A DNA stretch of 64,000 bases from an uncultured Oligoflexia bacterium (GTDB taxonomy: Bacteria; Bdellovibrionota; Bacteriovoracia; Bacteriovoracales; Bacteriovoracaceae). Position numbers and translations under genes: made by a program. The stretch lies in assembly GCA_913058265.1 (NCBI GenBank), contig CAJXPQ010000011.1:43900-107899 (forward strand). Reading direction: 5' to 3'. The notes under the pieces were generated by a model, which worked only from the letters and a program-made list of their open reading frames with translations, made no database searches and was not told the DNA's origin. Shown here in pieces: positions 44,396 through 57,007 of this stretch. The first letter of the stretch is position 1, and each line of letters opens with the position of its first letter.

Positions 44396-45433
44396 ATGTT
44401 TAAAAGAGTCTTAGATTGGTTTTCTAATGATCTAGCAATTGATCTTGGTACAGCGAATACATTAGTTTATGCTCGAGATGGTGGAATTATTGTAAATGAG
44501 CCCTCAGTTGTTGCAGTACATGTGGGTTATAGAGGTGAACAAAAAATATTAGCTGTTGGTGATAAAGCCAAAGAAATGCTCGGAAGAACACCTGGATCTA
44601 TTAAAGCAATAAGACCAATGAAAGACGGTGTTATCGCTGATTTTGAAATCACTCAAGCTATGCTTAAGCATTTTATTCAAAAATCTATGAATGGTTCTAA
44701 GTTGGTTAAGCCTCGAATTATTATCTGTATTCCTTTTGGTATTACACAGGTTGAGAAAAGAGCTGTTAAGGAATCTGCTGAGCAGGCAGGTGCGAGAGAA
44801 GTCTATTTGATCGAAGAACCTATGGCCGCTGCTATTGGTGCGGGTTTACCAATTACAAACCCTTCTGGAAATATGATCGTAGACATTGGTGGCGGGACAA
44901 CAGAGGTTGCCGTTATCTCTCTAGGTGGAATTGTTTATTCTAAGTCTGTCCGAGTTGCAGGCGATAAATTTGATGAAGCAATTATAAACTATATTAAGAA
45001 AAAATATTCATTACTCATTGGTGAGAGAACTGCTGAGATGATTAAAATCTCAATTGGAAACGCATATCCGTTTGATGAAGAAGTGAAAACATATGAAGTG
45101 AAGGGTAGAGATCTTATTGCTGGAGCACCGAAAACAATAGAGGTGACTAGTGATGAAATAAGAGAAGCACTATCTGATCCTATCGCGGAAGTAATTGAAG
45201 CGATTAAAACTTCATTAGAAAAAACACCTCCAGAGCTAGCTGCTGATATAGTCGATAATGGCATAATATTGGCCGGTGGTGGGTCACTTTTAGCAAACCT
45301 TGATATTCTTATTAAAGAAAAAACAGGATTACCTGTCTCTCTTGCTGAAGACCCGTTAACCTGTGTTGTTAGGGGCTGTGGAACGGCATTAGAAAATATT
45401 ACATTGTTACGTCAGGTAACAACATTGTCATAG
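44396..45433 (+). CDS. mreB: Rod-shape determining protein MreB
   Basis: 345 aa actin-like protein that guides elongation of the cell wall. Motifs: [32 protein letters not shown] (phosphate 1), [15 protein letters not shown] (phosphate 2) and [15 protein letters not shown] (adenosine). The N-terminal amphipathic start MFKRVLDWF is present. The neighbours are unusual: mreC and mreD do not follow. Instead a PilZ protein begins 6 nt after the stop. Confidence 0.97.
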
Positions 45434-45439
45434 GGGCCT

Positions 45440-46279
45440 ATGAGTCAAGAGCAAAATGTTCACTTTAAAGAGTTAAATCTCAAAGAAGTAAAGAGCAAGC
45501 TTGCTTTGCTGGCAAAGCCTAAGAAAAATAAGATTATTATATGGAAGAAAGGTGGCGGGAATAAAGTTGAACTTCTTGCCATTGACTATGTGCGCTCAAA
45601 AAATGAGCTGCAAGTGAAAGAAGAAGTTGCAGATGAGCTTATAGGAGAGGAAGTATTATTTTCTTTTGAACTCAATGGACTGCATTTCTTTGGGAAATGT
45701 AAACCTGTCTCATTCGGAAAGACTAGGTTTTATCTGGATTGTAATTACCAAGTTTTCAAAAGCGAAAGAAGATTAAACTTTCGTTTACTGACATATCCTC
45801 ATCAAAAGGTTTATGCGAGCGTATATGTTGGTGATGATAAAATAAAAGCATCAAACTTATTCAGCTTGAAAACAGGTGTGAATGAAACCGGATTATTTAC
45901 TAGTTTCCTAGATATTGTCAATGATGAAGCCTCTGAAGAGAAATTGAAAATGGTCGAAGGACATTTACAGTTTAGGGTCATAGATATTTCAGTAACAGGA
46001 ATGGCAATACTTTTAGGTGAAATCGAAAGTAAATTATTTCTTGAGAATAATATAAATTTAGGAAAGGTCATAATTGATTTTAATGGAGATCATCTAGAAA
46101 TAGAGGATGTGAAATTATTATATAAGATGGATTTCTTAGCATCGAGGAAGGCTACAAAAATGTATAAAGCCGGACTACAGTTCCTAAATATCGATACCAA
46201 TTTAGATGAAAAACTTCAAAGTATTATTAATTCAACGCTAAGAGATCTTGAGTCAGAATTTGAGGACTTCATTAGGTGA
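45440..46279 (+). CDS. PilZ-domain protein (c-di-GMP receptor candidate)
   Basis: 279 aa. The PilZ RxxxR motif is at Arg111-Arg115 (RRLNFR) and the second motif DISVTG follows in VIDISVTGMAIL. Both c-di-GMP ligand sets are kept. The N-terminal ~95 residues form a beta-rich YcgR-N-like domain (KNKIIIWKKGGGNKVELLAID). No membrane helix, so it is cytosolic. 6 nt after mreB, and its end overlaps the next lipoprotein gene as GTGA, so the block is one operon. This would link c-di-GMP to wall growth or its partners. Confidence 0.82.
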   Translation: MSQEQNVHFKELNLKEVKSKLALLAKPKKNKIIIWKKGGGNKVELLAIDYVRSKNELQVKEEVADELIGEEVLFSFELNGLHFFGKCKPVSFGKTRFYLDCNYQVFKSERRLNFRLLTYPHQKVYASVYVGDDKIKASNLFSLKTGVNETGLFTSFLDIVNDEASEEKLKMVEGHLQFRVIDISVTGMAILLGEIESKLFLENNINLGKVIIDFNGDHLEIEDVKLLYKMDFLASRKATKMYKAGLQFLNIDTNLDEKLQSIINSTLRDLESEFEDFIR

Positions 46280-47022
46280 AGTTTTTATTCCTCATCTTTC
46301 TTATCTATTCCTGTGCCACAAGCCCATTGGGAAATGTGGAGTCAGACCAACAATATAATGGATCTAGATATTATGAACTATCTGATAAGACAGGTAACTT
46401 TTTAGTCAAGAGAGAAGTTAAGCTAGGTTCTAAAAAACTCCTAACTCGAACGACTGTTTTAACTCGAGATGGTATGCAAGAACTCGAAAAACAAGTTTCT
46501 GTTTCTAAAATTGGAAATGTGAAGGGAAGGCGAGGAGCCGTTAAAGCACTCTTGCCAGAAGCTGCTCAATTTGTCGTTTGGTATAATAAAAAGGCATATT
46601 CAGCACAACAAAAAGTAAATACAAAACAAAAGACTATAAAGATAAAAGTTAAGGACCCTGATGGTGAAAAAAAAGCATATCAAGAATTTAAAGTTCCAAA
46701 AGGAAGTTATTTTTGTTATTTTTCACAAATCCCAGAGTGCTTGAAAATTCAAAACTTACTATTAAAAGCAGCTAATAAAAGTATACAAATTTTTGTACTA
46801 TGGGATAACTTTCCATTTCATACAGAACAGTACGAAGGTGTCATTAATAGCCCAATGATCCTTGCAACATTGAAGTTAAATGACCATAGTAAAGATGAAT
46901 TGAAATATGCTTTAGATATCGGGAATCAAATGATTTTTTACCATTTTGATAAAAAGCTAAACTTTGATAAAATGTTTTGGATTTCCCAAGGTATAAGTAT
47001 GCTAGGAATCACTAAGGAGTAA
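46276..47022 (+). CDS. Lipoprotein of unknown function
   Basis: 248 aa, lipobox LIYSC with Cys13. Mature part starts ATSPLGNVE. Basic central region KGRRGAVKALLPEAAQFVVWYNKKAYSAQ. No known domain. GTG start overlapping the PilZ stop (GTGA). Located between PilZ and nagZ, so perhaps an outer-membrane partner of wall growth. Confidence 0.7.
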   Translation: MKFLFLIFLIYSCATSPLGNVESDQQYNGSRYYELSDKTGNFLVKREVKLGSKKLLTRTTVLTRDGMQELEKQVSVSKIGNVKGRRGAVKALLPEAAQFVVWYNKKAYSAQQKVNTKQKTIKIKVKDPDGEKKAYQEFKVPKGSYFCYFSQIPECLKIQNLLLKAANKSIQIFVLWDNFPFHTEQYEGVINSPMILATLKLNDHSKDELKYALDIGNQMIFYHFDKKLNFDKMFWISQGISMLGITKE

Positions 47023-47024
47023 GA

Positions 47025-48086
47025 GTGAACTTAAATGATGTTGGACAAATGTTTATGACAGGAATTTCTGGATTAAGCCTAACTGATGAAGAGAAGAAGT
47101 TTATTCAAGAGAGTAATATTGGCGGAATAATATTATTTAAACATAACTATGAAGCTCCTGGTCAGTTGGCAGAGTTAGTAAACGAGATACAAACTTTAAG
47201 AGATGAATATCCCCTGTATATATCAGTAGATCAAGAAGGTGGAAGAGTTCGAAGATTTCAAACTCACTTTAGTCAATTGCCATCTATGTTTAAAGTCGGT
47301 GAGTTGAATTCTCCAAAGACAACGTTTGAACTCCACAAACTAATGGGTGAAGAATTAAGTGCATGTGGAGTCAACTTAGACTACTCACCTTGCTGTGATA
47401 TATGGTCTAACCCAAATAATAAAGTGATCGGAGACAGATCATTTGGAAAGAACTTAGAAGATGTAGATAAGCATGTTAGTGCAGCTATTCGAGGTCTTCA
47501 TACGGCAAATGTATTGGCCTGTGCTAAACATTTTCCGGGGCATGGAGATACCACAAAGGATTCTCACTATGATCTTCCTTTTGTGAAAAAATCTATGAAG
47601 CAACTTAAGGAGAACGAATTAGTTCCTTTTCAGAAAGCGGCAAAATCCAGAATTGAATTCGTTATGATGGCCCACCTTGTGGTTGATGCAATTGATAAAG
47701 AGCTTCCATGTACACTAAGTAAAAAAGCCTATACTTTTCTTAGGTCAGAACTTAAATATAAAAGGATTATTATAACTGACGACATGGAAATGAAAGCAAT
47801 TACAGATCATTATAGCTACGGAGATGCTGCTATCATGGCAATTGAAGCGGGTGCAGATATTCTTATATATCGTAGCCTAGAGAAGGCAAAAGAAGCTTAC
47901 GATGGACTAATGTTAGGTATAAAAGAGAAGAAAGTGAATAAGTCTAATATAGAAGATAAGGTCAAAAGAATCTACGACTGCAAGAAAAGATTTTTATCCG
48001 AATATAATCCTATATACATTCCAAGTTTATCAAAAGTCTTTAAGGAAAGCCGAAACACTGACTTACTTGACCAATTTAGTGAGTAG
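47025..48086 (+). CDS. nagZ: Beta-N-acetylglucosaminidase NagZ (GH3)
   Basis: 353 aa GH3 enzyme that removes GlcNAc from muropeptides during cell-wall recycling. Motifs: ISVDQEGGRVRRF, CAKHFPGHGDTTKDSH (histidine general-base loop of NagZ type) and the nucleophile Asp in IITDDMEMKAI. GTG start with AAGGAG 7 nt upstream. It follows the mreB-PilZ-lipoprotein genes at 2 nt and probably ends that operon. Predators need rapid muropeptide handling; this is inference. Confidence 0.93.
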   Translation: MNLNDVGQMFMTGISGLSLTDEEKKFIQESNIGGIILFKHNYEAPGQLAELVNEIQTLRDEYPLYISVDQEGGRVRRFQTHFSQLPSMFKVGELNSPKTTFELHKLMGEELSACGVNLDYSPCCDIWSNPNNKVIGDRSFGKNLEDVDKHVSAAIRGLHTANVLACAKHFPGHGDTTKDSHYDLPFVKKSMKQLKENELVPFQKAAKSRIEFVMMAHLVVDAIDKELPCTLSKKAYTFLRSELKYKRIIITDDMEMKAITDHYSYGDAAIMAIEAGADILIYRSLEKAKEAYDGLMLGIKEKKVNKSNIEDKVKRIYDCKKRFLSEYNPIYIPSLSKVFKESRNTDLLDQFSE

Positions 48087-48182
48087 GAGTGTGATCAATT
48101 TTTCCGCATTTCAGCACATCTGAAGATCATCCAAATGTTTGATATTATATAGATAGTAACGAAAAAAATGTTTCGGAGCTGT

Positions 48183-49694
48183 ATGCTATATAAAATATGT
48201 ACAGTAGTGCTATTGGCGCTATTGATGTCATTCCAAACTTATGCTCAACGCAATAGTAATTGTGGGGATACATTTGAGTCAATAACTCTTGGCTGTATTA
48301 AAAGTCAGCAAAAGAAGCTAGATGCATACGAGGCTAGTCAGAAGAAAAAACAGGTATATTACGAAAAAGCAGTGAAAGGTCTAAAGGGCTTTGAAATAAA
48401 GAAAGCTGAGTTACAAAAAGATCTTGTTTTAATATTAAAAAATCTAGAAGAAGCAAGAAAAATAAAAAACAATATATATGTTTATCAATCGTCAGCAAAC
48501 ATATATGGAAAATTTCTTATAAAAGATGTTTTTCTTACAAATAACAGTTGTTCTCTGTTGGTAGAGTCACTCGCCTATAGATCAAAAGAAGTCATAAATA
48601 AAACCATGACGATCGCTATTGAGAATACAACCAGCTCGTGGAATACAGATAGAGTTTCATTTGATAATAATGGAACGAGTAACTTCATGCTAAAAAGAGA
48701 GCATGGTATATGTGTCTTAAAAAGAGTTACAGGTAAGGTGGCCTTACTCAAGAAGATGCCATTACCACCAGAGAATGAAGGGAATTTAATTATTCTCTAT
48801 GCTGGTTATTTTGCAATTGGACTATCTGCCTTCTTAATTGCAAGAACAGTATTTCAAGATGAAGATAAGTATAAGGCTCAAGAAAAATTAGAAATTGCAG
48901 ATGACTCTTCAGATGATAAGAAAAATACCCCAAATGACATAGTCCTGAAGTATTCAAGACCCTTCTTTAAGAGATATATCTCACCTGTCGTTCAAGGAAT
49001 GAAGAAAAAGCGTATTATTCGTGAGAAATATAAGCGTCCATTAGCATCCTCTGGCATGAATAAGTTTTTAACTCCAGAAGACTTCTATGCATTTAAATTA
49101 TTTCTAATTCTAGGTTTTCCACTTGTATTTCTTGGTTTAAGAGTCTTTTTAGAAGAGGATTGGCCACTAATTTATCTTCCTATCATTTCGATTGGAGGCT
49201 TTCTCTATCCAGACTTTTGGATCAAGGGAAAAACAGAACAGAGAAGGCAAGAAGTTCTTGAGAATATGCCATTCGTGGTTGATATGTTAGCCCTTTCTGT
49301 TGAGGCAGGTCTCGACTTTGTAGCAGCGATGCAGAAAGTTATTGAAAAGGCTCCTGATTCAGCTTTGGTTGAAGAGTTTGAAACAATGATTAAAGAGACG
49401 AAGATCGGAGCAAGTAGAGCGGAAGGTCTGAGACAAATGTCTTGGCGAATAGATGCTCTACCTATGTCCTCCTTTTGTGCCACATTGATTGCTGCTGATT
49501 CTGTGGGTGCCAATATTAGTCCAATATTAAAAACCTTAGCACAAGAATTGAGACAGAAAAGATCCTCTGTCATAGAGCAAAAAGGTGCACAAGCTGCTAC
49601 AAAAATATTAATTCCAATGATCTTCTTTGTACTACCTGCAACTCTCATTGTAATTATGGCCCCAATAGTCTTACAGCTGATGGGGGTGTCATGA
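48183..49694 (+). CDS. TadC-like membrane protein with N-terminal exported domain
   Basis: 503 aa. The C-terminal 250 residues carry the type II secretion system F domain: membrane helices around VLGLRVFLEEDWPLIYLPIISIGGF, the DMLALSVEAGLDFVAAMQKV box and the closing helix ILIPMIFFVLPATLIVIMAPIV, as in TadC of Tad/Flp pili. The first ~200 residues start with a signal-type helix (MLYKICTVVLLALLMSFQTYAQ) and form an extracytoplasmic domain, followed by the helix ILYAGYFAIGLSAFLIA. TadC normally lacks such a domain. TadB, TadA and Flp are not in the window. Start at 48183 has GGAG 4 nt upstream; an ATG at 48168 is in frame. Confidence 0.82.
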   Translation: MLYKICTVVLLALLMSFQTYAQRNSNCGDTFESITLGCIKSQQKKLDAYEASQKKKQVYYEKAVKGLKGFEIKKAELQKDLVLILKNLEEARKIKNNIYVYQSSANIYGKFLIKDVFLTNNSCSLLVESLAYRSKEVINKTMTIAIENTTSSWNTDRVSFDNNGTSNFMLKREHGICVLKRVTGKVALLKKMPLPPENEGNLIILYAGYFAIGLSAFLIARTVFQDEDKYKAQEKLEIADDSSDDKKNTPNDIVLKYSRPFFKRYISPVVQGMKKKRIIREKYKRPLASSGMNKFLTPEDFYAFKLFLILGFPLVFLGLRVFLEEDWPLIYLPIISIGGFLYPDFWIKGKTEQRRQEVLENMPFVVDMLALSVEAGLDFVAAMQKVIEKAPDSALVEEFETMIKETKIGASRAEGLRQMSWRIDALPMSSFCATLIAADSVGANISPILKTLAQELRQKRSSVIEQKGAQAATKILIPMIFFVLPATLIVIMAPIVLQLMGVS

Positions 49695-50035
49695 AAATTA
49701 TCCATAAGAGAACAGGCAAAATTATTGCGCACGATGCACGTATAGCAAATACAACTTTAAGTAGAATGAAAGGGCTAATGTTTATTGATAAGATGGACGG
49801 GTTTGATGCTCTTATACTTGACCCTGGAAATTCGATTCATAATTGCTTTGTGAGATTCTCTTTAGATGTAATCTTTGTAAATAACAAATATGAAGTAGTC
49901 AAAATTATTAGAGATTTCAAACCATGGAGATTTTCCTGGATATATTTTAGGGCAACAAAGGTAATTGAACTTCAAGCCGGAAGCTTAATAAAAGAAATCA
50001 AAGAGTCTGATGTTGTGGAGGTTCAAGGTGTTTAA
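49691..50035 (+). CDS. DUF192 family protein
   Basis: 114 aa. Typical DUF192 features: RMKGLMF, the NCFVRFSLDVIFVN core (usually a His/Trp-Met-x-Asp-Ile-Phe) and VIELQAGSL near the end. No signal peptide. DUF192 genes recur in Tad and secretion loci of delta-like bacteria; the molecular role is unknown. ATGA overlap with the TadC-like gene and 8-nt overlap with the FHA gene support one operon. Confidence 0.85.
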   Translation: MKIIHKRTGKIIAHDARIANTTLSRMKGLMFIDKMDGFDALILDPGNSIHNCFVRFSLDVIFVNNKYEVVKIIRDFKPWRFSWIYFRATKVIELQAGSLIKEIKESDVVEVQGV

Positions 50036-51602
50036 GTTAGTCGCTGTTGGTGGAAAGATCAGAGGTTTAGAAATTGAACTACATGATGGATCAAACGTTT
50101 TAGGAAGGTCTCATGACTGTGAACATGTTTTAGCTGTAGACGGAATATCAAAGAAGCATGTTGAAATCACTATTAATAATGAATCGTGCTTTTTACAAGA
50201 TTTAGGCTCTTCGAATGGAACTTTTGTAAACGGTAAATTAGTGAAGAAAAAGACAGTTGTCGATAAAGATAAGATCGCACTACCAAATGTCATATTTCAA
50301 CTAGTTCACGTTAAAGAAAAGAAAATTGTTGTAACAAAAAAAGTATTAAAAGGTAATGCAGAGGGGACAGATTTAGATTTTGGTGATGCTAAACCAAATG
50401 ATCTTCCAGGCAAAATAAAATATTGGTTTAAGAATACAGCGATGAAAGTTGTTTATAGTTTTAATGAGCAATATGAGTGGAATGTCATGTTGGCGATCTT
50501 CTTGTTTATGATGACATGTGGAAATATTTATCTAACAATCGGCCCTGTACTTACTAAAACCCAAATCTTAATTGAAACAGAAATTAATGAAAGAGGGAAG
50601 CATATTGCCGAAGAGATTGTCCGAACGAACTCTAGGTATTTAAATGAAGGAAATATGCAACGAATTAACACTAGCTTCTTGGAGAGATTAGTGGATTCCG
50701 GTGATGTTGTTTCTTATGAATTAACAGATATTCAAGGAAGAATAGTTAGGCCTGTTAGTAAAATCGATACACTTGATACAGATGTATTTACTGCAAAAGC
50801 AATGTCGAAATTCAAATCAATGGGGCAGAAAAGCTATTTCCAAACATTTTTTGATTCATCCATTTTTGATGGAGAAGTTGGAGTTGCAAAACTATTGGTT
50901 GTTAACGACCCTGAAAGTGGCCAAGACAAAGCAGTTGGTTTAATAGCTATTAGGTTTAAGCCAGACTCCCTAAGACAGTTTAGCTCAATGAGTGCTGAGG
51001 CTTATCTAACAGCATTGGTTATGACTACAATCCTTGGCAGTTTATTCTTTGCAATTATCTATTATCTTACAATTCGTCCCTTACTCGATATGCGAAGACA
51101 GACGGAAGATGTTTTGAGAGGTAAGAAAAAAGATGTCGATTTTAAATACTTGTTTGAAGAGTTAAATCCATTCAAAAATACAATAAATAGTATTCTCCAA
51201 AAAAATCGGGAACTTATGAACGATGATTCACAGGATTTTGCTGAAATTGAAGAAGAAGGACCCTATATCTCTATTATGTATGAAGTTATGAAGGGATCTC
51301 CTGGAGCCGCGATTGTTTTAAGCGCAGAAAAAAATGTCGAATATGTTAATGAGATGGCCGGTGACTTAACTGGAATGAGAGAAAATCTCGTGCAAGGTAG
51401 TAATATATTAGATGCAGCATCTAATGAAGGCTTTGCTGGGACACTTATTAAGTTATGTGATGATACTGCAAATAATGGTGGGGTAAATCAAAGTGACTTT
51501 TACGAGTTAGATGGTGATCCCTATATAATTAATGTTATGGCCTTAATGGGGAAAGATAGCTTCGCAAAAGCTTACCTCATATCTTTTGCTAGGGAAAAAT
51601 AA
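50028..51602 (+). CDS. FHA-domain membrane sensor with PAS-like C-terminus
   Basis: 524 aa. FHA domain at residues ~1-95: LGRSHDCEH, ISKKHVEI and LGSSNGTFVNG are all intact (phosphothreonine-binding Arg, Ser, Asn pattern). Linker, then a TM helix around MLAIFLFMMTCGNIYLTI, an extracytoplasmic sensor region of ~140 residues, a second TM helix LTALVMTTILGSLFFAIIYYL, then a HAMP-like segment and a C-terminal PAS-like domain (AIVLSAEKNVEYVNEMAGDLTG). No kinase, GGDEF or HTH output is visible. The GTG at 50028 with GGAGG 6 nt upstream is preferred over an ATG at 50010. Confidence 0.88.
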   Translation: MFKLVAVGGKIRGLEIELHDGSNVLGRSHDCEHVLAVDGISKKHVEITINNESCFLQDLGSSNGTFVNGKLVKKKTVVDKDKIALPNVIFQLVHVKEKKIVVTKKVLKGNAEGTDLDFGDAKPNDLPGKIKYWFKNTAMKVVYSFNEQYEWNVMLAIFLFMMTCGNIYLTIGPVLTKTQILIETEINERGKHIAEEIVRTNSRYLNEGNMQRINTSFLERLVDSGDVVSYELTDIQGRIVRPVSKIDTLDTDVFTAKAMSKFKSMGQKSYFQTFFDSSIFDGEVGVAKLLVVNDPESGQDKAVGLIAIRFKPDSLRQFSSMSAEAYLTALVMTTILGSLFFAIIYYLTIRPLLDMRRQTEDVLRGKKKDVDFKYLFEELNPFKNTINSILQKNRELMNDDSQDFAEIEEEGPYISIMYEVMKGSPGAAIVLSAEKNVEYVNEMAGDLTGMRENLVQGSNILDAASNEGFAGTLIKLCDDTANNGGVNQSDFYELDGDPYIINVMALMGKDSFAKAYLISFAREK

Positions 51603-52591
51603 TGTCAAATGCTGTTAAAATTTTTAATCATTTTGATACACCTAAGAAGGAAGGTGTTTATCATCGATTAATATGCTTAACAGGAGAAAATAAGGGAAAG
51701 GCTTATTTTATTGTTGGTAAAAGAATTGTTATCGGTAGATCTGAAACAGCAGATGTTACGATTCTTGACCTTAAGTCTTCAAGAGAACATGCTGAAATTA
51801 TACTTGTAGGTGACACATATATAATTACAGATCTTGGTTCACAAAATGGAATCATTGTTAATGATTTAAAAATTAAACAACATAGTCTCGGAAACGGAGA
51901 TAAAATTATTATAGGTAAGACTGTTTATAAGTTCTCTAAGGTAGTCGTTAAAAACCAATTAAAAAAAGTTAAAGAGAATTCTTCTATTGATTCGGACTCT
52001 GAAAGTTTAAGTGAAGAGAAGGAACCTGAAAGTAAACGACTTATGCTTATGCTTGTGGGGGTTTCAATAATCCTCGTACTCATTTTAGCTATTGATGATG
52101 AAGAACCAATAAATAAAAAATCTCTCGTGAAAACAAATATTTCTACAATTGTGCGTGATGAAAAATTTAAAAATGCCCTAACAACCAAAAGTATATTGTC
52201 AGAAAAAAGTAAAGAAAAGGTTGCACTATATATTCAGAGAGGTCTTCGAGAGCTTCGTGAAGATAATTACTTTCGTGCAATTGCTGAGCTTGAAAGTGCT
52301 AGGCAGTGGAGCCCAAATAATTCAAGAGTAAATGCTTATTTAAGAATTGCTAGAGAAAGACTAGATGAAAAAATTGAAGGATTTTTTAATAAGGCCCTTA
52401 GAGACAAAGAAGCCATAAATTATCAGAATTCTATTACTTCCTACTGTGCTGTTGTCAGGTTACTTGCTAATTTTCCTGATGACTCCAGATATCTTACGGC
52501 CATAGAGGGTGTTAAGGATCTTGAAGTAAGAATGGGACTAGCTGAAGGAACTACTAAATGTATTGATTTGAGGGGGCCAAATGTTAATTAA
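51602..52591 (+). CDS. FHA-domain membrane protein with TPR-like C-terminus
   Basis: 329 aa. FHA domain at residues ~20-115 with IGRSETADV, SSREHAEI and LGSQNGIIVN (complete). One TM helix around LMLMLVGVSIILVLILAI. The extracytoplasmic part carries TPR-like helices (GLRELREDNYFRAIAELESARQWSPNN). So a cytoplasmic phosphothreonine receptor is coupled to a periplasmic protein-binding scaffold. ATG overlaps the previous stop (TAATG). Confidence 0.88.
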   Translation: MSNAVKIFNHFDTPKKEGVYHRLICLTGENKGKAYFIVGKRIVIGRSETADVTILDLKSSREHAEIILVGDTYIITDLGSQNGIIVNDLKIKQHSLGNGDKIIIGKTVYKFSKVVVKNQLKKVKENSSIDSDSESLSEEKEPESKRLMLMLVGVSIILVLILAIDDEEPINKKSLVKTNISTIVRDEKFKNALTTKSILSEKSKEKVALYIQRGLRELREDNYFRAIAELESARQWSPNNSRVNAYLRIARERLDEKIEGFFNKALRDKEAINYQNSITSYCAVVRLLANFPDDSRYLTAIEGVKDLEVRMGLAEGTTKCIDLRGPNVN

Positions 52592-54920
52592 GGCTTTTAA
52601 CGGATCAATACAATTTGAAGAAATAAATATTTTGGAGGAAGATCTTCTCGGTGGAGGTGAGATATTTATTGGGAGAGAGGAGGATTGTCATATCATACTA
52701 GATTCTCATCAAGTTTCTCGTTATCATGCATCAATAACACTTGAAGAAAACGTGCTTCTATTTAAAGTCTTATCAGACTATGGAGGCGTAAGCTTTAACG
52801 GAACGAGTATAGAGAAAAAACAGATTAATAATCAAGATACCTTTAAGATCTTTGATTTTGAAATTAATATTTCTGACATCCACTCTAGCTATTCAACACC
52901 TGTGGATACTAGTACAAATAGTGTTAATGAAGAAAATGAAAATAGTGAAGATGACTTGCTTGAAGGTGTTAAAGGAGCAGAAGGTCTAGACGACTATCTT
53001 GAGGATGCCCCTGTTATGACAGATACTGACTCGTCGTCTAATGTCGAGTCGACCGATATCCTTACTCGTGTCACGAATGAATCGGATGATAATCCGGGAA
53101 TAACTGGGTCTGAAGTTACAGATGAAGAAAAAAATGAATTCAATGAATTTCGAAGTGAAAATTATGATGATGACTATCTTGAAGATAATTACTCCGAGAC
53201 GACTGATGATGAAGTCGAAAATGAACTCGAGGCAATAAATGATCAAGAAAATAGTGAACCAATTGTAAATGATGATTTTAATTTTGGTGATAACGATGAA
53301 GTTCAGGAATTTTCATCTGATGACGAAGGGTTTGACTCTGGATTTGGTGACGATGGCGGTGAGATGTCTGATGATGATGGAAGCGCGACTCAAGTCCTAA
53401 GTTCCTTTGCAAACTATTATTTAGAACTTGTTGGTGAGTACGCTCCATTTGATAAATATCAAATAACGGACTTAGAGACATTTATTGGTCGAGACTCTGA
53501 GAAATGTCAGATCGTTCTAGATGACCCTGAAGTTTCGAAGACACATGCAATGATAAGAAAGAGTCTAATTGGATGTGTCGTGGAAGATTTGAATTCATCA
53601 AATGGAATCCTTTTCAATGGTGAAAGAGTTAATAAAGCAGAGTTAACAAATGAGGACGAATTTCTTATCGGTGATACTGCCTTTATGGTGCGTATAACAT
53701 CGGATATAATTGAAGTTGAAAAAGGCCGTTTGATGCCTGTTGAGGAAAATCAAGAAGTCGAAATTGAAGAAATTATTGAAGAAGAAGTCGATTACGATCA
53801 ATTTGGTGCAGAAGAAGGTGAGTTTGGTGTAGAGGAAGAAAAAAGCTTTATAAAGCGAATCTGGAAAGATAAGAGAAAACGATTGTACTTGATCGTTGGT
53901 ATTGTTGTCTCACTAGTTTTTTTACTCGGAGATGAAGACACTAGTGAAGTTAAACCGGATGTGACAACTGAGCAGAAAGAAAAAGTTGAAGAAAAAGAAA
54001 CGTCAGAATTTAGCCCAGAGATTCTAGAGAAACTAGAACAAAACTATACTCTTGCATTGGCGAAAAGTGAAGCCGGTGAATATTATGAAGCCAAAGAGTA
54101 TATTGATATAGTTATGCAGATTGACCCGGAATATCGTGATGGAAACGCAAAGATTCTAGAAAAATTAATTCAAGAGGGCTACGATAAATTAATCAAAATG
54201 AAGGAAGAAGAGCAAGCTCGTAAAGAGAAGCTTGAGCGTCAGGCCAAAGTTAGAGAGCTTCTAAAAAAAGCAACTAAAGCTGTTGATGATCGAAACGCAG
54301 CAGCGGCGAGAAAGTTTTTCGGGATGATATTTGAGCTTGATCCGGAAAATCCAGACGTTACACCACTTAAGATTGATATTGATGCTTGGGAAGCCGAAGT
54401 TAAAAGAAAAGCTCAGGAAGAACAATTAGCAAAAGCAAGAAGAACAGCAATGGTAGGTAAGCTATCACCTGGTAAAACATTATACCTAAAGCAAGATTGG
54501 TATAAAGCAATTGATAAACTTGAAAAGTTTTTACAAGAAGAGGGCATGGACGAGGACCTGATTAAAGAGGCTACGGATATGTTAAAAGATTCTAAGCGTA
54601 AGCTTCTTCAACAAGTTAATCCTTTACTGAGTAAAGCAAGGTCATACCGAGACGGGCAAGACTTAAAGCAAGCTTATGAAACATATGATGAAGTTTTAAA
54701 CTTTGAGCCAAGTAATGAAGAGGCGCTAAATGAGAAAGGGGATATTTTTGATTTATTAATTAATAGATCAAAGAAAGTTTACCGTGAAGCTTTAGTCGCT
54801 GAATCCTTGAGCCTTTATCCTAAAGCCAAAGAGAAGTTTCAAGAAGTTCAGCAAATCTCCCCTATTAATAGTAAGTACTATATTAAGGCGACAAATAAAC
54901 TTAAAAACTATTTGGAGTAA
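52581..54920 (+). CDS. Double-FHA, acidic-linker, TM and TPR scaffold protein
   Basis: 779 aa. FHA-1 (residues ~15-95) has FIGREEDCH and VSRYHASI, but the usual SxNG turn reads SDYGGVSFNG, so its pThr site may be weakened. A ~165-residue stretch very rich in Asp/Glu/Ser/Asn follows. FHA-2 (residues ~285-370) is complete: FIGRDSEKC, VSKTHAMI, NSSNGILFNG. Then an acidic patch, a TM helix near residue 440 (LYLIVGIVVSLVFLL) and an extracytoplasmic region with TPR-like repeats (LAKSEAGEYYEAKEYIDIVMQIDP and similar). It overlaps the previous gene by 11 nt and has a strong GAGGGG ribosome site. Probable assembly platform for the complex. Confidence 0.87.
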   Translation: MLIKAFNGSIQFEEINILEEDLLGGGEIFIGREEDCHIILDSHQVSRYHASITLEENVLLFKVLSDYGGVSFNGTSIEKKQINNQDTFKIFDFEINISDIHSSYSTPVDTSTNSVNEENENSEDDLLEGVKGAEGLDDYLEDAPVMTDTDSSSNVESTDILTRVTNESDDNPGITGSEVTDEEKNEFNEFRSENYDDDYLEDNYSETTDDEVENELEAINDQENSEPIVNDDFNFGDNDEVQEFSSDDEGFDSGFGDDGGEMSDDDGSATQVLSSFANYYLELVGEYAPFDKYQITDLETFIGRDSEKCQIVLDDPEVSKTHAMIRKSLIGCVVEDLNSSNGILFNGERVNKAELTNEDEFLIGDTAFMVRITSDIIEVEKGRLMPVEENQEVEIEEIIEEEVDYDQFGAEEGEFGVEEEKSFIKRIWKDKRKRLYLIVGIVVSLVFLLGDEDTSEVKPDVTTEQKEKVEEKETSEFSPEILEKLEQNYTLALAKSEAGEYYEAKEYIDIVMQIDPEYRDGNAKILEKLIQEGYDKLIKMKEEEQARKEKLERQAKVRELLKKATKAVDDRNAAAARKFFGMIFELDPENPDVTPLKIDIDAWEAEVKRKAQEEQLAKARRTAMVGKLSPGKTLYLKQDWYKAIDKLEKFLQEEGMDEDLIKEATDMLKDSKRKLLQQVNPLLSKARSYRDGQDLKQAYETYDEVLNFEPSNEEALNEKGDIFDLLINRSKKVYREALVAESLSLYPKAKEKFQEVQQISPINSKYYIKATNKLKNYLE

Positions 54921-54925
54921 TTATA

Positions 54926-55663
54926 ATGGAATTAAAAAAATTCTCAGTTGAATCACATCAAGGGCCATTTCTTAATATTAATGAAGATGGCTACGACTTC
55001 AATCTAAGTGATGAGTTGTTTATGATTTTTGATGGCTTCGGAGGAAGTGGTATTGGTGATAAAAACCTAGTCACTCTAAAAGAAAATCTCAAAAAGTTTT
55101 TTCATAATTTTATCTCTGATCGTAATTCAACGATGCCTTTTTATTATAGTCCTAAATATTTACTCGAAGGTAATGCACTCATTAATTCAGCTCTGTTTTC
55201 ACATTTTGAGCTGTATAAAGAGAATTTGAAGAAGCCGTTCGGTGAACGTGCTGGAGCAAGTGGTATACTAGCTTTGAAGTTTGAATCTATTGTTTCTTTA
55301 TTGTCCGTTGGAAATTGTCGGGCATATATTCTTAGAAAAGGTAAAATAAAATCCGTATTTAGTGAGGATAGCTTTCAATTACTTTCTCATGATAAGTTCG
55401 ATGGGCCACACAAGAATATTCCTTTGTCAGGCTTTGGACTCTTTCCTGACCTGCACTATCAACTAAAAGAAATTCGTGTAACATCCGGGGATAAGTTACT
55501 TTTAATTACAGATGGCGTCTATGGAAGACTGGATGAGGACGAACTCCAATCAGGAATGAGTAAAGACACTATTAACATTAAGAATAAAATCCTTGAGCTA
55601 TTTGAACTTGCAAACTCTCGTGGAAATTTGGATAACCAAACTTGCATGATTCTTGAATTCTAG
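54926..55663 (+). CDS. PP2C-type protein phosphatase
   Basis: 245 aa PPM-family Ser/Thr phosphatase. Metal-binding motifs: NEDGYDF, DGFGGSG, DGVYGR and DNQT at the C-terminus; GASGILAL and SVGNCRAYILR are also present. It directly follows the FHA genes, so it most likely removes phosphates from the proteins the FHA domains recognise, as PppA opposes PpkA/Fha1 in P. aeruginosa type VI secretion. No Ser/Thr kinase gene is found in the window. Confidence 0.9.
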   Translation: MELKKFSVESHQGPFLNINEDGYDFNLSDELFMIFDGFGGSGIGDKNLVTLKENLKKFFHNFISDRNSTMPFYYSPKYLLEGNALINSALFSHFELYKENLKKPFGERAGASGILALKFESIVSLLSVGNCRAYILRKGKIKSVFSEDSFQLLSHDKFDGPHKNIPLSGFGLFPDLHYQLKEIRVTSGDKLLLITDGVYGRLDEDELQSGMSKDTINIKNKILELFELANSRGNLDNQTCMILEF

Positions 55664-55744: not shown

Positions 55745-57007
55745 ATGAAACCTAAAATTGTCATTGCTGACGATGGACCTACAATTCAAAAAGTTATTAA
55801 AATAACTTTGGCCAATGAAGATTTTGACCTTGTGGAATGTTTATCTGCAGATAATTTAATGGATATAGTAGAAAGTGAAAAACCAAGTTTAGTATTATTA
55901 GATTTTAATTTATCTGATAGTAAAACTGGTTATGATCTATCAAAAGAAATTAAATCAATATGTCATTCAAAAATCATGATGCTATATGGTACTTACGACA
56001 CTATCAATGAGTCTCTCTTTGATGAGGCAGGTGTTAATGGTCATATCGTAAAGCCGTTTGATGGATCTAAATTTATAAATCTTTGTAAACAACTTATTAA
56101 TGATAGTTCACTTGAAAGTGCCGATGATGTATCTAATTCTGTAGATATGACTACTGATGAACCAGATATAGACTCTGATGATGAATGGGTTGTTAATCAG
56201 CCAGAAGTTATCGACTTCTCTGACGAGTCTGAAATTTCATCTGCTGATATTGTAACAACAGAAGAAATGAGTCAACTCGCCCAGGGAATGGAAGAGTGGG
56301 GAATGGATGTCCCAGGTGTTATTGGAAGTACTTCTAGCGAAGTAGAGTTACCTCCTGTCATTATGGCAGCATCACCAGCAGATAAAGATAGTAATAGTAT
56401 TGTCGTTGAAGAGACGCTTCTCCCAGCTAATGATGAACTTGAATATCCAGATATGAGTTCTCATAATCCATCTACGTCACTTATTTCAATTGAAGAGCTT
56501 GATGTGGATGAGTCCGAATTAGACATTGAAGAACTCGATGTAGCTGCTGATATGCCGTCTGAGGGAATTGGCTTAGATGATACTATTGGCACTGTATCTG
56601 ATGTAGAAATAGCAAACCTTGAAGCAGAGATTGCAGATGAAGTAGAAACAGAGGACTTCTCTGTTGATGCGTCTGCTATCGAAGACTCTTTTAATGATAT
56701 TGAAAGCGATGATGAAGACCTTTGGGCAGCTGATGAAGTCATTGAAGACTCTAGTTCAAGTGAATCAATTATTGGTTTAACAGAAGAGATTGAATCAGAA
56801 CAACAGATTGATCAGCAATTTACTGCAGATAAAAATATTGAAGATAAAATTGAAAGCTTACTCGGCCCTATGATTGAAAAAATTGTTCAAGAAAAAGTTG
56901 ATCGTGCAATTGAAAAAATTGCATGGGAAGTCATTCCTGATCTTGCCGAAAACCTTATCAAGAAAGAATTAAAATCAATATCTGACGAAGTTATGAATTC
57001 TCTTTAA
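55745..57007 (+). CDS. Receiver-domain protein with acidic linker and C-terminal helical tag
   Basis: 420 aa. Receiver domain (residues 1-120): Asp9/Asp10, phosphoacceptor Asp53 in LLDFNLSD, Thr83, Lys103 in HIVKPFDG. The next 240 residues are Asp/Glu/Ser-rich and low complexity. The last ~60 residues form an amphipathic helix set (KVDRAIEKIAWEVIPDLAENLIKKEL), a tag I recall on many delta-group single-domain receivers. No DNA-binding domain. A possible promoter TTGTTC-17-TAGAGT (55695-55723) stands in the gap before it. It overlaps birA at the 3' ends by 17 nt, in opposite directions. Confidence 0.88.
   Translation: MKPKIVIADDGPTIQKVIKITLANEDFDLVECLSADNLMDIVESEKPSLVLLDFNLSDSKTGYDLSKEIKSICHSKIMMLYGTYDTINESLFDEAGVNGHIVKPFDGSKFINLCKQLINDSSLESADDVSNSVDMTTDEPDIDSDDEWVVNQPEVIDFSDESEISSADIVTTEEMSQLAQGMEEWGMDVPGVIGSTSSEVELPPVIMAASPADKDSNSIVVEETLLPANDELEYPDMSSHNPSTSLISIEELDVDESELDIEELDVAADMPSEGIGLDDTIGTVSDVEIANLEAEIADEVETEDFSVDASAIEDSFNDIESDDEDLWAADEVIEDSSSSESIIGLTEEIESEQQIDQQFTADKNIEDKIESLLGPMIEKIVQEKVDRAIEKIAWEVIPDLAENLIKKELKSISDEVMNSL

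What the first reader, a model, noticed from the sequence alone, without database searches (positions are those of the whole stretch)
48183..55663. Candidate phosphothreonine-controlled Tad-like secretion/pilus module: TadC-like, DUF192, three FHA membrane proteins, PP2C
Six genes overlap or touch, so they act as one operon. They combine a T2SF/TadC membrane platform, four FHA domains in three membrane proteins (one PAS-sensor type, two with periplasmic TPR-like parts) and a PP2C phosphatase. FHA domains bind phosphothreonine and PP2C removes it. In P. aeruginosa the PpkA-Fha1-PppA set controls T6SS in this way. A similar switch on a Tad-type machine, with FHA scaffolds spanning the membrane, is not something I know as a described system. 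No kinase is in the block.
Basis: partly seen in the sequence, partly recalled or inferred. Interest (0 to 1): 0.7.

Follow-up and report, generated by a model that had tools for sequence, protein, structure and literature searches.

The report
Phospho-switched half of a predator's pilus
In a relative of the predator Bdellovibrio this gene block holds the only TadC gene, the part missing from the bacterium's Tad pilus operon, beside three proteins with phosphothreonine-reader (FHA) domains and one invariant threonine, so it likely works as the switch that arms a prey-attack pilus; nearly all relatives examined keep the block together, although Bdellovibrio's copy of its phosphatase has lost the catalytic residues.

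Summary
The block is TadC, DUF192, FHA-sensor-PAS, FHA-TPR, double-FHA-TPR and PP2C, plus a seventh (REC) gene conserved in the class. It is not an undescribed operon: it is the ortholog of B. bacteriovorus Bd0470-Bd0475, already tied to predation by transposon work. Its TadC is the genome's only one; the tad core operon elsewhere has TadB but no TadC. All seven genes stay in order in 52 of 54 untruncated class loci, and the first five together in 51 of 54 from 20 other families.

New here: (1) a threonine about 10 residues before the second FHA of the Bd0474-type protein is invariant (113 of 113 aligned) in an otherwise unconserved linker, in a context like the DgcB self-ligand tail. (2) The sixth protein is a PP2C with its metal ligands in the window's class, lost in one clade that includes Bd0475, which models as a PP2C-fold pseudophosphatase. 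(3) One conserved Ser/Thr kinase, linked to a DgcB ortholog, is the likely writer. FHA pocket residues are kept even where the phosphatase is dead.

Likely mechanism: kinase-written phosphothreonine is read by FHA scaffolds that gate or cluster the Tad platform. Phosphorylation is untested.

The parts
48168..49694 (+). TadC-like T2SF platform protein (508 aa; N-terminal extension of about 200 aa with four conserved Cys)
   Evidence: T2SSF 2.9e-15; homologs named tight adherence protein C; Cys 27, 38, 123, 177 conserved in A1; only TadC-like gene of the genome
49691..50035 (+). DUF192 protein, role unknown
   Evidence: PF02643 5.1e-14; sits between TadC and the first FHA gene in the conserved order
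50010..51602 (+). FHA - TM - periplasmic sensor-like domain - TM - PAS protein (FPAS)
   Evidence: FHA 3.7e-15; AlphaFold2 model pLDDT 85.4, first Foldseek row WalK 1.8e-12
50034..50312 (+). FHA domain of FPAS; pocket residues R33, S47, N69
   Evidence: R 70/74, S 74/74, N 74/74 in the class
51602..52591 (+). FHA - TM - TPR-like protein (FTPR; Bd0473 type)
   Evidence: FHA 1.8e-15; R46, S60, N82 each 68/68 in the class
52581..54920 (+). double-FHA - TM - periplasmic TPR protein (FFTPR; Bd0474 type)
   Evidence: two FHA stretches, TPR-like C-terminal part; the HD100 ortholog matches 12 of 12 published Bd0474 residues
53388..53390 (+). codon of the invariant Thr270, predicted phosphosite
   Evidence: T in 113 of 113 aligned proteins; shuffle control
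53418..53705 (+). FHA2 of FFTPR; pocket residues R304, S319, N341
   Evidence: 64/65, 64/65 and 63/65 in the class
54926..55663 (+). PP2C phosphatase with Asp21, 36, 196, 236 present; replaced by a pseudophosphatase in Bdellovibrio and its nearest relatives
55745..57007 (+). response-regulator receiver domain with long tail and conserved C-terminal helix; seventh gene of the block in the class
   Evidence: Response_reg 4.5e-13; present in 52 of 54 untruncated class loci

Best explanation
The block carries the genome's only TadC, the part missing from its tad core operon, together with three FHA-domain proteins, and it likely works as a phosphothreonine switch that would couple a prey-contact signal to assembly or clustering of the Tad pilus machine. 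Shown by sequence: TadC here and the rest of Tad elsewhere; four FHA domains, three with complete phosphothreonine pockets; an invariant Thr (Thr270) in an acidic-T-x-hydrophobic context about 10 residues before FHA2; a PP2C with its metal ligands; one conserved Ser/Thr kinase linked to a DgcB ortholog. Inferred: the kinase would phosphorylate Thr270 and the DgcB tail; FHA2 or a neighbour's FHA would bind phospho-Thr270 (the short spacer makes binding in trans, hence clustering, more likely than folding back in cis); the sensor-PAS protein and the periplasmic TPR parts would pass the envelope signal to TadC. In this class the PP2C would reset the switch; in Bdellovibrio its dead relative would keep only a binding role.
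For: Order kept in 52 of 54 untruncated class loci; first five genes together in 51 of 54 untruncated loci of 20 other families, 49 in strict order. TadC match in 114 of 116 class genomes, 110 of them below 1e-30, and in 143 of 144 of the phylum sample. Tad core operon without a TadC in 11 of 11 stretches examined. Thr270 in 113 of 113; T within 30-44 residues before the FHA2 Arg in 113 against 64.0 (sd 5.0) in shuffles, T-x-hydrophobic in 107 against 15.6 (sd 3.7); acidic at -4 to -2 in 107 of 113, hydrophobic at +2 or +3 in 111. FHA pocket residues kept, also in the 16 loci with a dead PP2C. PP2C Asp ligands all present in 63 of 65 class rows. Kinase match in 114 of 116 class genomes, 111 below 1e-90; only PF00069 match over the cut-off in the own genome; within 7 kb of a DgcB ortholog in 12 of 12 chosen loci and in the own genome. 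Published: Bd0470::tn fails to attach, kill and round, Bd0474::tn attaches but does not kill or round (PMC6561027, passages); DgcB FHA binds its own tail around Thr14, kinase unknown, Bd3148 suggested (PMC6733907, passages).
Against: No phosphorylation was shown here or found (titles of 10 of 11 listed papers, none a Bdellovibrio phosphoproteome). The kinase is not in the block; reader and writer are tied only by co-conservation and by a motif resemblance. The PP2C cannot be essential: no PP2C-like neighbour in 10 of 51 loci outside the class (one, L167, ends about 400 bases after the last FHA gene), and 33 of 40 complete ones lack at least one ligand Asp. The own genome has a second, intact PP2C. 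The window's PP2C has Leu16 where canonical PP2Cs have a phosphate-binding Arg (motif recalled). FHA1 of FFTPR lacks the pocket Asn. Three f8 loci and one class locus have TadC without the block. Rows dropped before the 113: two f9 proteins have a Thr without the strict motif, and L228 shows no clear FHA2.
Confidence: 0.55

Rival explanations
1. The FHA proteins are a phosphorylation-independent structural ring or scaffold of the Tad machine, as FHA-like domains are in SctD/YscD and perhaps GltG; the invariant Thr is structural and the PP2C a relic or binding subunit.
For: FHA stretches also match Yop-YscD_cpl and GltG; FHA + TM + TPR resembles GltG; FHA1 of FFTPR lacks the pocket Asn; the sixth protein is catalytically dead in 15 of 16 rows of one clade and incomplete in others.
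Against: Arg, Ser and Asn of three of four FHA pockets are kept in the class and outside it, which a phospho-independent scaffold would not need; the Thr lies in an otherwise unconserved acidic linker and is never Ser.
Confidence: 0.25
2. The block is a phosphothreonine module, but its output is not Tad: TadC is merely a co-transcribed neighbour and the FHA proteins signal to another system such as gliding or polar c-di-GMP signalling.
For: The kinase neighbourhood holds a DgcB ortholog and a GYF-PilZ protein, and Bd0474 binds the TPR protein Bd0075 (two-hybrid, PMC12034629, passages); in three f8 loci and one class locus TadC stands without the block.
Against: Across 20 other families the block sits next to TadC in 51 of 54 loci while TadC is separated from TadB; Bd0470 (TadC) and Bd0474 mutants both lose predation.
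Confidence: 0.12
3. The PP2C is the active controller and its main substrate is not Thr270; the FHA proteins bind other phosphoproteins such as the kinase itself.
For: The HD100 kinase linker has an E-D-K-T-I-V stretch of similar type; FHA domains often bind autophosphorylated kinases (general knowledge).
Against: The PP2C is lost or dead in many lineages that keep Thr270 and the FHA pockets; in the own kinase the motif is at another place and was not shown to be conserved.
Confidence: 0.08

Closest known systems
Bdellovibrio bacteriovorus Bd0470-Bd0475 operon
   Same: Same gene order TadC, DUF192, FHA, FHA, double-FHA-TPR, sixth gene; identified by 12 of 12 published Bd0474 residues, contig length 3,782,950 and the 228-aa Bd0475
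   Different: Bd0475 is a dead PP2C there, active-site residues present here; the seventh (REC) gene was not detected in the 15-kb HD100 stretch L158; the HD100 TadC lacks the long N-terminal extension
Myxococcus xanthus Kil (Tad-like) system
   Same: Tad genes split over two loci, several FHA proteins, role in contact-dependent prey killing (PMC8460266, passages)
   Different: KilF ATPase has an N-terminal FHA; here the ATPase is a TadZ-TadA fusion without FHA; in Kil the two platform proteins KilG and KilH are in one cluster, here TadB and TadC are apart
Pseudomonas T6SS threonine phosphorylation pathway (PpkA-PppA-Fha1)
   Same: Kinase, PP2C and FHA reader logic; PppA structure 6jkv is among the matches of the window PP2C (8.3e-6) and of the Bd0475 model (6.4e-11)
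DgcB / GarA / OdhI FHA proteins with a self-ligand phosphothreonine tail
   Same: A conserved Thr in a disordered acidic stretch N-terminal to a pocket-complete FHA
   Different: Here the pair sits inside a two-FHA transmembrane TPR protein and the spacer is about 10 residues instead of about 18 in DgcB (Thr14, FHA from residue 32; PMC6733907, passages)
PP2C / PPM phosphatases (Stp1, PstP, tPphA)
   Same: Fold and Asp ligands in the window protein
   Different: In six families of one clade the fold is predicted to remain without the ligands: a bacterial PP2C-fold pseudophosphatase

Membership tests
TadC (T2SF platform of Tad pili) | T2SSF domain with a Tad-type single domain | tested here: met
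   PF00482 2.9e-15, one stretch; homologs labelled tight adherence protein C
Tad system | TadA ATPase, TadB, RcpA secretin, RcpC, prepilin peptidase, TadE-like genes in the genome | tested here: met
   L031 by ORF reading and T2SSE/T2SSF matches; same operon recognised by phmmer with the own proteins in 10 other genomes; names RcpA, RcpC, TadV, TadE given from sequence and order, no Pfam scan run on them
Tad system | Flp major pilin | not tested
   no Flp search was run
Kil system of Myxococcus | FHA fused to the N-terminus of the Tad ATPase | tested here: not met
   14 PF00498 matches in the genome, none in the TadZ-TadA gene
Kil system of Myxococcus | Tad genes split over loci, with several FHA proteins | tested here: met
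T6SS-type threonine phosphorylation pathway | kinase encoded in the same cluster as FHA protein and PP2C | tested here: not met
   no kinase in the block; kinases on contigs C8 and C6
PP2C phosphatase | metal-binding Asp residues of the DGxGG, DG and DN motifs | tested here: met
   window Asp36, 196, 236; all four tested Asp in 63 of 65 class rows
PP2C phosphatase (Bd0475) | same residues | tested here: not met
FHA with phosphothreonine self-ligand (DgcB/GarA/OdhI type) | conserved Thr N-terminal to an FHA with Arg, Ser, Asn pocket | tested here: met
FHA with phosphothreonine self-ligand (DgcB/GarA/OdhI type) | the Thr is phosphorylated and bound by an FHA | not testable with these tools
   needs biochemistry or phosphoproteomics

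The most novel reading that the evidence does not exclude
One ancient kinase-FHA circuit controls prey attack across the phylum: the DgcB-linked kinase writes the same kind of mark on the DgcB tail and on the invariant Thr of the Bd0474-type scaffold, so that c-di-GMP production and the Tad platform fire together at prey contact; the eraser born in the Tad operon was later turned into a non-catalytic scaffold (pseudophosphatase) in the Bdellovibrio lineage, making the commitment to attack harder to reverse.
Probability: 0.3. Interest if true: 0.82.

Novelty: new variant of a known kind. Interest (0 to 1): 0.62.

Why it matters
How a predatory bacterium turns prey contact into machine assembly is open: the kinase that licenses DgcB is unknown (PMC6733907, passages) and the Kil authors only guess at an FHA cascade (PMC8460266, passages). 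This work offers one residue to mutate (Thr270 and its HD100 equivalent), one kinase to delete and one protein (Bd0475) whose annotation as hypothetical can be replaced by PP2C-fold pseudophosphatase, each testable in laboratory Bdellovibrio. It would also be a case of a bacterial signalling enzyme turned into a likely scaffold inside a conserved operon.

Tried and rejected
Undescribed system: rejected after the literature search showed Bd0470-Bd0475. PP2C as the constant eraser: rejected, it is dead or absent in many lineages. Conserved Thr in other cytoplasmic linkers: the class alignments of FPAS and FTPR show none of comparable conservation, and a motif scan of the own Tad proteins gave only the ATPase P-loop hit. 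PDB sequence search with the TadC profile A1: no match to E 0.01. Myxococcus kil clusters could not be compared directly because no named Myxococcus genome was reached. No FliA-type promoter scan was made. Structure of FFTPR, TadC or any complex was not predicted (both jobs went to Bd0475 and FPAS). VIA rows for FPAS cover only the FHA part (residues 4-105), so the periplasmic and PAS parts stay untested there. A first FastTree drawing with midpoint root showed a support label of 0.37 at the node of the 16 dead-PP2C rows (labels can shift on re-rooting); the IQ-TREE quick tree gives SH-aLRT 100 for that split. The minimum of 6 intact/broken changes counts the cut-short L212 as broken.
Full report
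What is there. The six genes are on the + strand, overlapping or 5 bases apart, and Pfam/NCBIfam confirm TadC-like T2SF, DUF192, four FHA domains in three proteins, weak PAS, TPR-like parts and a PP2C. The window lies at 43900-107899 of contig C11 of a 3.23-Mb draft genome. The nearest named relatives of its TadC are contigs titled Halobacteriovoraceae and Bacteriovoracaceae, so the organism is probably a marine or freshwater Bacteriovoracia-type predator; its own name was not given.

It is the missing part of Tad. The genome has six T2SSF matches: two pairs in frames of 408-409 aa next to other secretion or pilus ATPases, one TadB, and the window protein. The tad core operon on contig C6 reads prepilin peptidase, two TadE-like genes, RcpC, RcpA, a TadZ-TadA fusion and TadB, then a YD-repeat gene, with no TadC. 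The same operon, again with no TadC-profile match other than TadB itself, was seen in all 11 stretches examined (own plus 10 chosen from 116 genomes). A match to the window TadC occurs in 114 of 116 class genomes; 110 are below 1e-30, while G092, G103, G104 (TadB level) and G107 (fragments) are weaker. In the phylum sample 143 of 144 genomes match; 34 of those 144 are the window's own family.

The block is kept together. Of 80 class loci, 54 had at least 9.5 kb after TadC; 52 have all seven genes in order, L097 has TadC alone and L113 lacks the REC gene; 26 shorter loci were not counted. Upstream, MreB-PilZ-lipoprotein-NagZ is present in 56 of 59 loci with room. Of 60 loci from other families, six cut by contig ends were dropped; of the other 54 (20 families), 51 have TadC, DUF192 and three FHA genes, 49 in strict profile order, the two f9 loci having the FHA-TPR profiles swapped; L209, L210 and L215 (f8) have TadC without the block.

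Relation to Bdellovibrio. In stretch L158 (contig 3,782,950 bases) the long FHA protein has all 12 residues published for Bd0474, and the sixth gene has the published 228 aa of Bd0475. The block is thus the ortholog of Bd0470-Bd0475. Seen in passages only: Bd0470::tn (TadC) lacks attachment, killing and rounding, Bd0474::tn attaches but does not kill or round (PMC6561027); Bd0474 binds Bd0075 in a two-hybrid test, and a Bd0473-Bd0475 pair is predicted at ipTM 0.604 (PMC12034629); HD100's TAD operon bd0109-0119 is required for predation through its pilins, and the passages name TadA, TadB, RcpA and RcpC but no TadC (PMC5430801); bd0470 tadC is transcribed with other pilus genes in attack phase (PMC3818213).

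Reader domains. Pocket residues Arg/Ser/Asn are kept as follows (class, six dead-PP2C families, other): FPAS 70, 74, 74 of 74; 16, 16, 16 of 16; 35, 35, 35 of 35. FTPR 68, 68, 68 of 68; 16, 16, 13 of 16; 34, 34, 31 of 34. FFTPR FHA2 64, 64, 63 of 65; 15, 16, 15 of 16; 32, 32, 29 of 32. FFTPR FHA1 keeps Arg (65/65, 16/16, 31/32) and Ser (65/65, 16/16, 29/32), but Asn is absent in the window and not among the commonest letters at that column, so it may bind otherwise. The FPAS model (pLDDT 85.4, pTM 0.44) shows FHA, membrane helices, a periplasmic mixed domain and a C-terminal PAS-like domain; the first Foldseek row is WalK, the next ones FHA domains including DgcB.

The invariant threonine. Aligning 113 double-FHA proteins (65 class including the window, 48 others), Thr270 is Thr in all 113, while no other column of the linker (92-279) exceeds 59%. 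Without using the alignment column, a Thr falls 30-44 residues before the FHA2 Arg in 113 against 64.0 (sd 5.0, max 78) in 1000 shuffles; T-x-hydrophobic in 107 against 15.6 (sd 3.7, max 33). Acidic residues at -4 to -2: 107 of 113; hydrophobic at +2 or +3: 111 of 113. Dropped before this count: L045 and L090 (cut short), L162 and L219 (f9; a Thr without the strict motif), L193 (cut short, has D-E-T-M-V), L194, L198, L199 (cut short) and L228 (no clear FHA2). DgcB, whose FHA binds its own tail around Thr14 with Glu at -2 and hydrophobic +2/+3 (PMC6733907, passages), is the nearest precedent; HD100 Bd0474 has D-E-K-T-M-I. From Thr270 to the first FHA2 strand is about 10 residues, shorter than in DgcB, so I infer binding in trans.

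Writer. The own genome has one PF00069 match over the cut-off, a 650-aa kinase with a predicted TM. A match is found in 114 of 116 class genomes, 111 below 1e-90, and in 140 of 144 of the phylum sample, where the weaker ones may be paralogs. In 12 of 12 chosen class stretches and the own genome it lies within 7 kb of a DgcB ortholog (6hbz, 7.7e-61) whose tail reads D-D-x-x-T-x-V or close to it. HD100 has a single match to the kinase profile (G176; L241); that it is Bd3148, named as candidate in PMC6733907, rests on position only.

Verdict. Known operon, new reading: a Tad platform half with a conserved phosphothreonine reader and an eraser that is catalytically intact in this class and dead in Bdellovibrio. 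The switch itself is inferred.

Noticed in passing
L031 7658-9313 (-) and L231-L239, L242: A YD-repeat (RHS-like) gene of about 550 aa follows tadB in 11 of 11 stretches examined; a candidate surface, tip or delivered protein of the Tad system.
   Followed up: partly
L031 10337-12451 (-): TadZ-like and TadA ATPase are fused into one 704-aa protein; recognised in all 11 tad stretches.
   Followed up: partly
window 48168-48780: The window TadC has an N-terminal extension of about 200 aa with four conserved cysteines; many relatives match only from about residue 200 on, so it varies between lineages.
   Followed up: partly
L033 3749-12379 and L243-L254: Conserved neighbourhood of kinase, GYF-PilZ-type protein, VWA-like protein, MiaA, MutL and DgcB ortholog in 12 of 12 chosen class stretches (in L243 the cNMP-binding gene was not found).
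   Followed up: partly
window 44396-48086: MreB, PilZ, lipoprotein and NagZ genes precede the block in 56 of 59 class loci with room, though without overlap with TadC.
   Followed up: partly
L240 5192-5938 (+): A second PP2C of the own genome, with intact motifs, next to a peptidase-like gene and secA; a possible alternative eraser.
   Followed up: no
G009:C1:119174-120073 and G009:C7:51503-52402: Two equally scoring TadC copies in one genome; duplication or assembly artefact.
   Followed up: no
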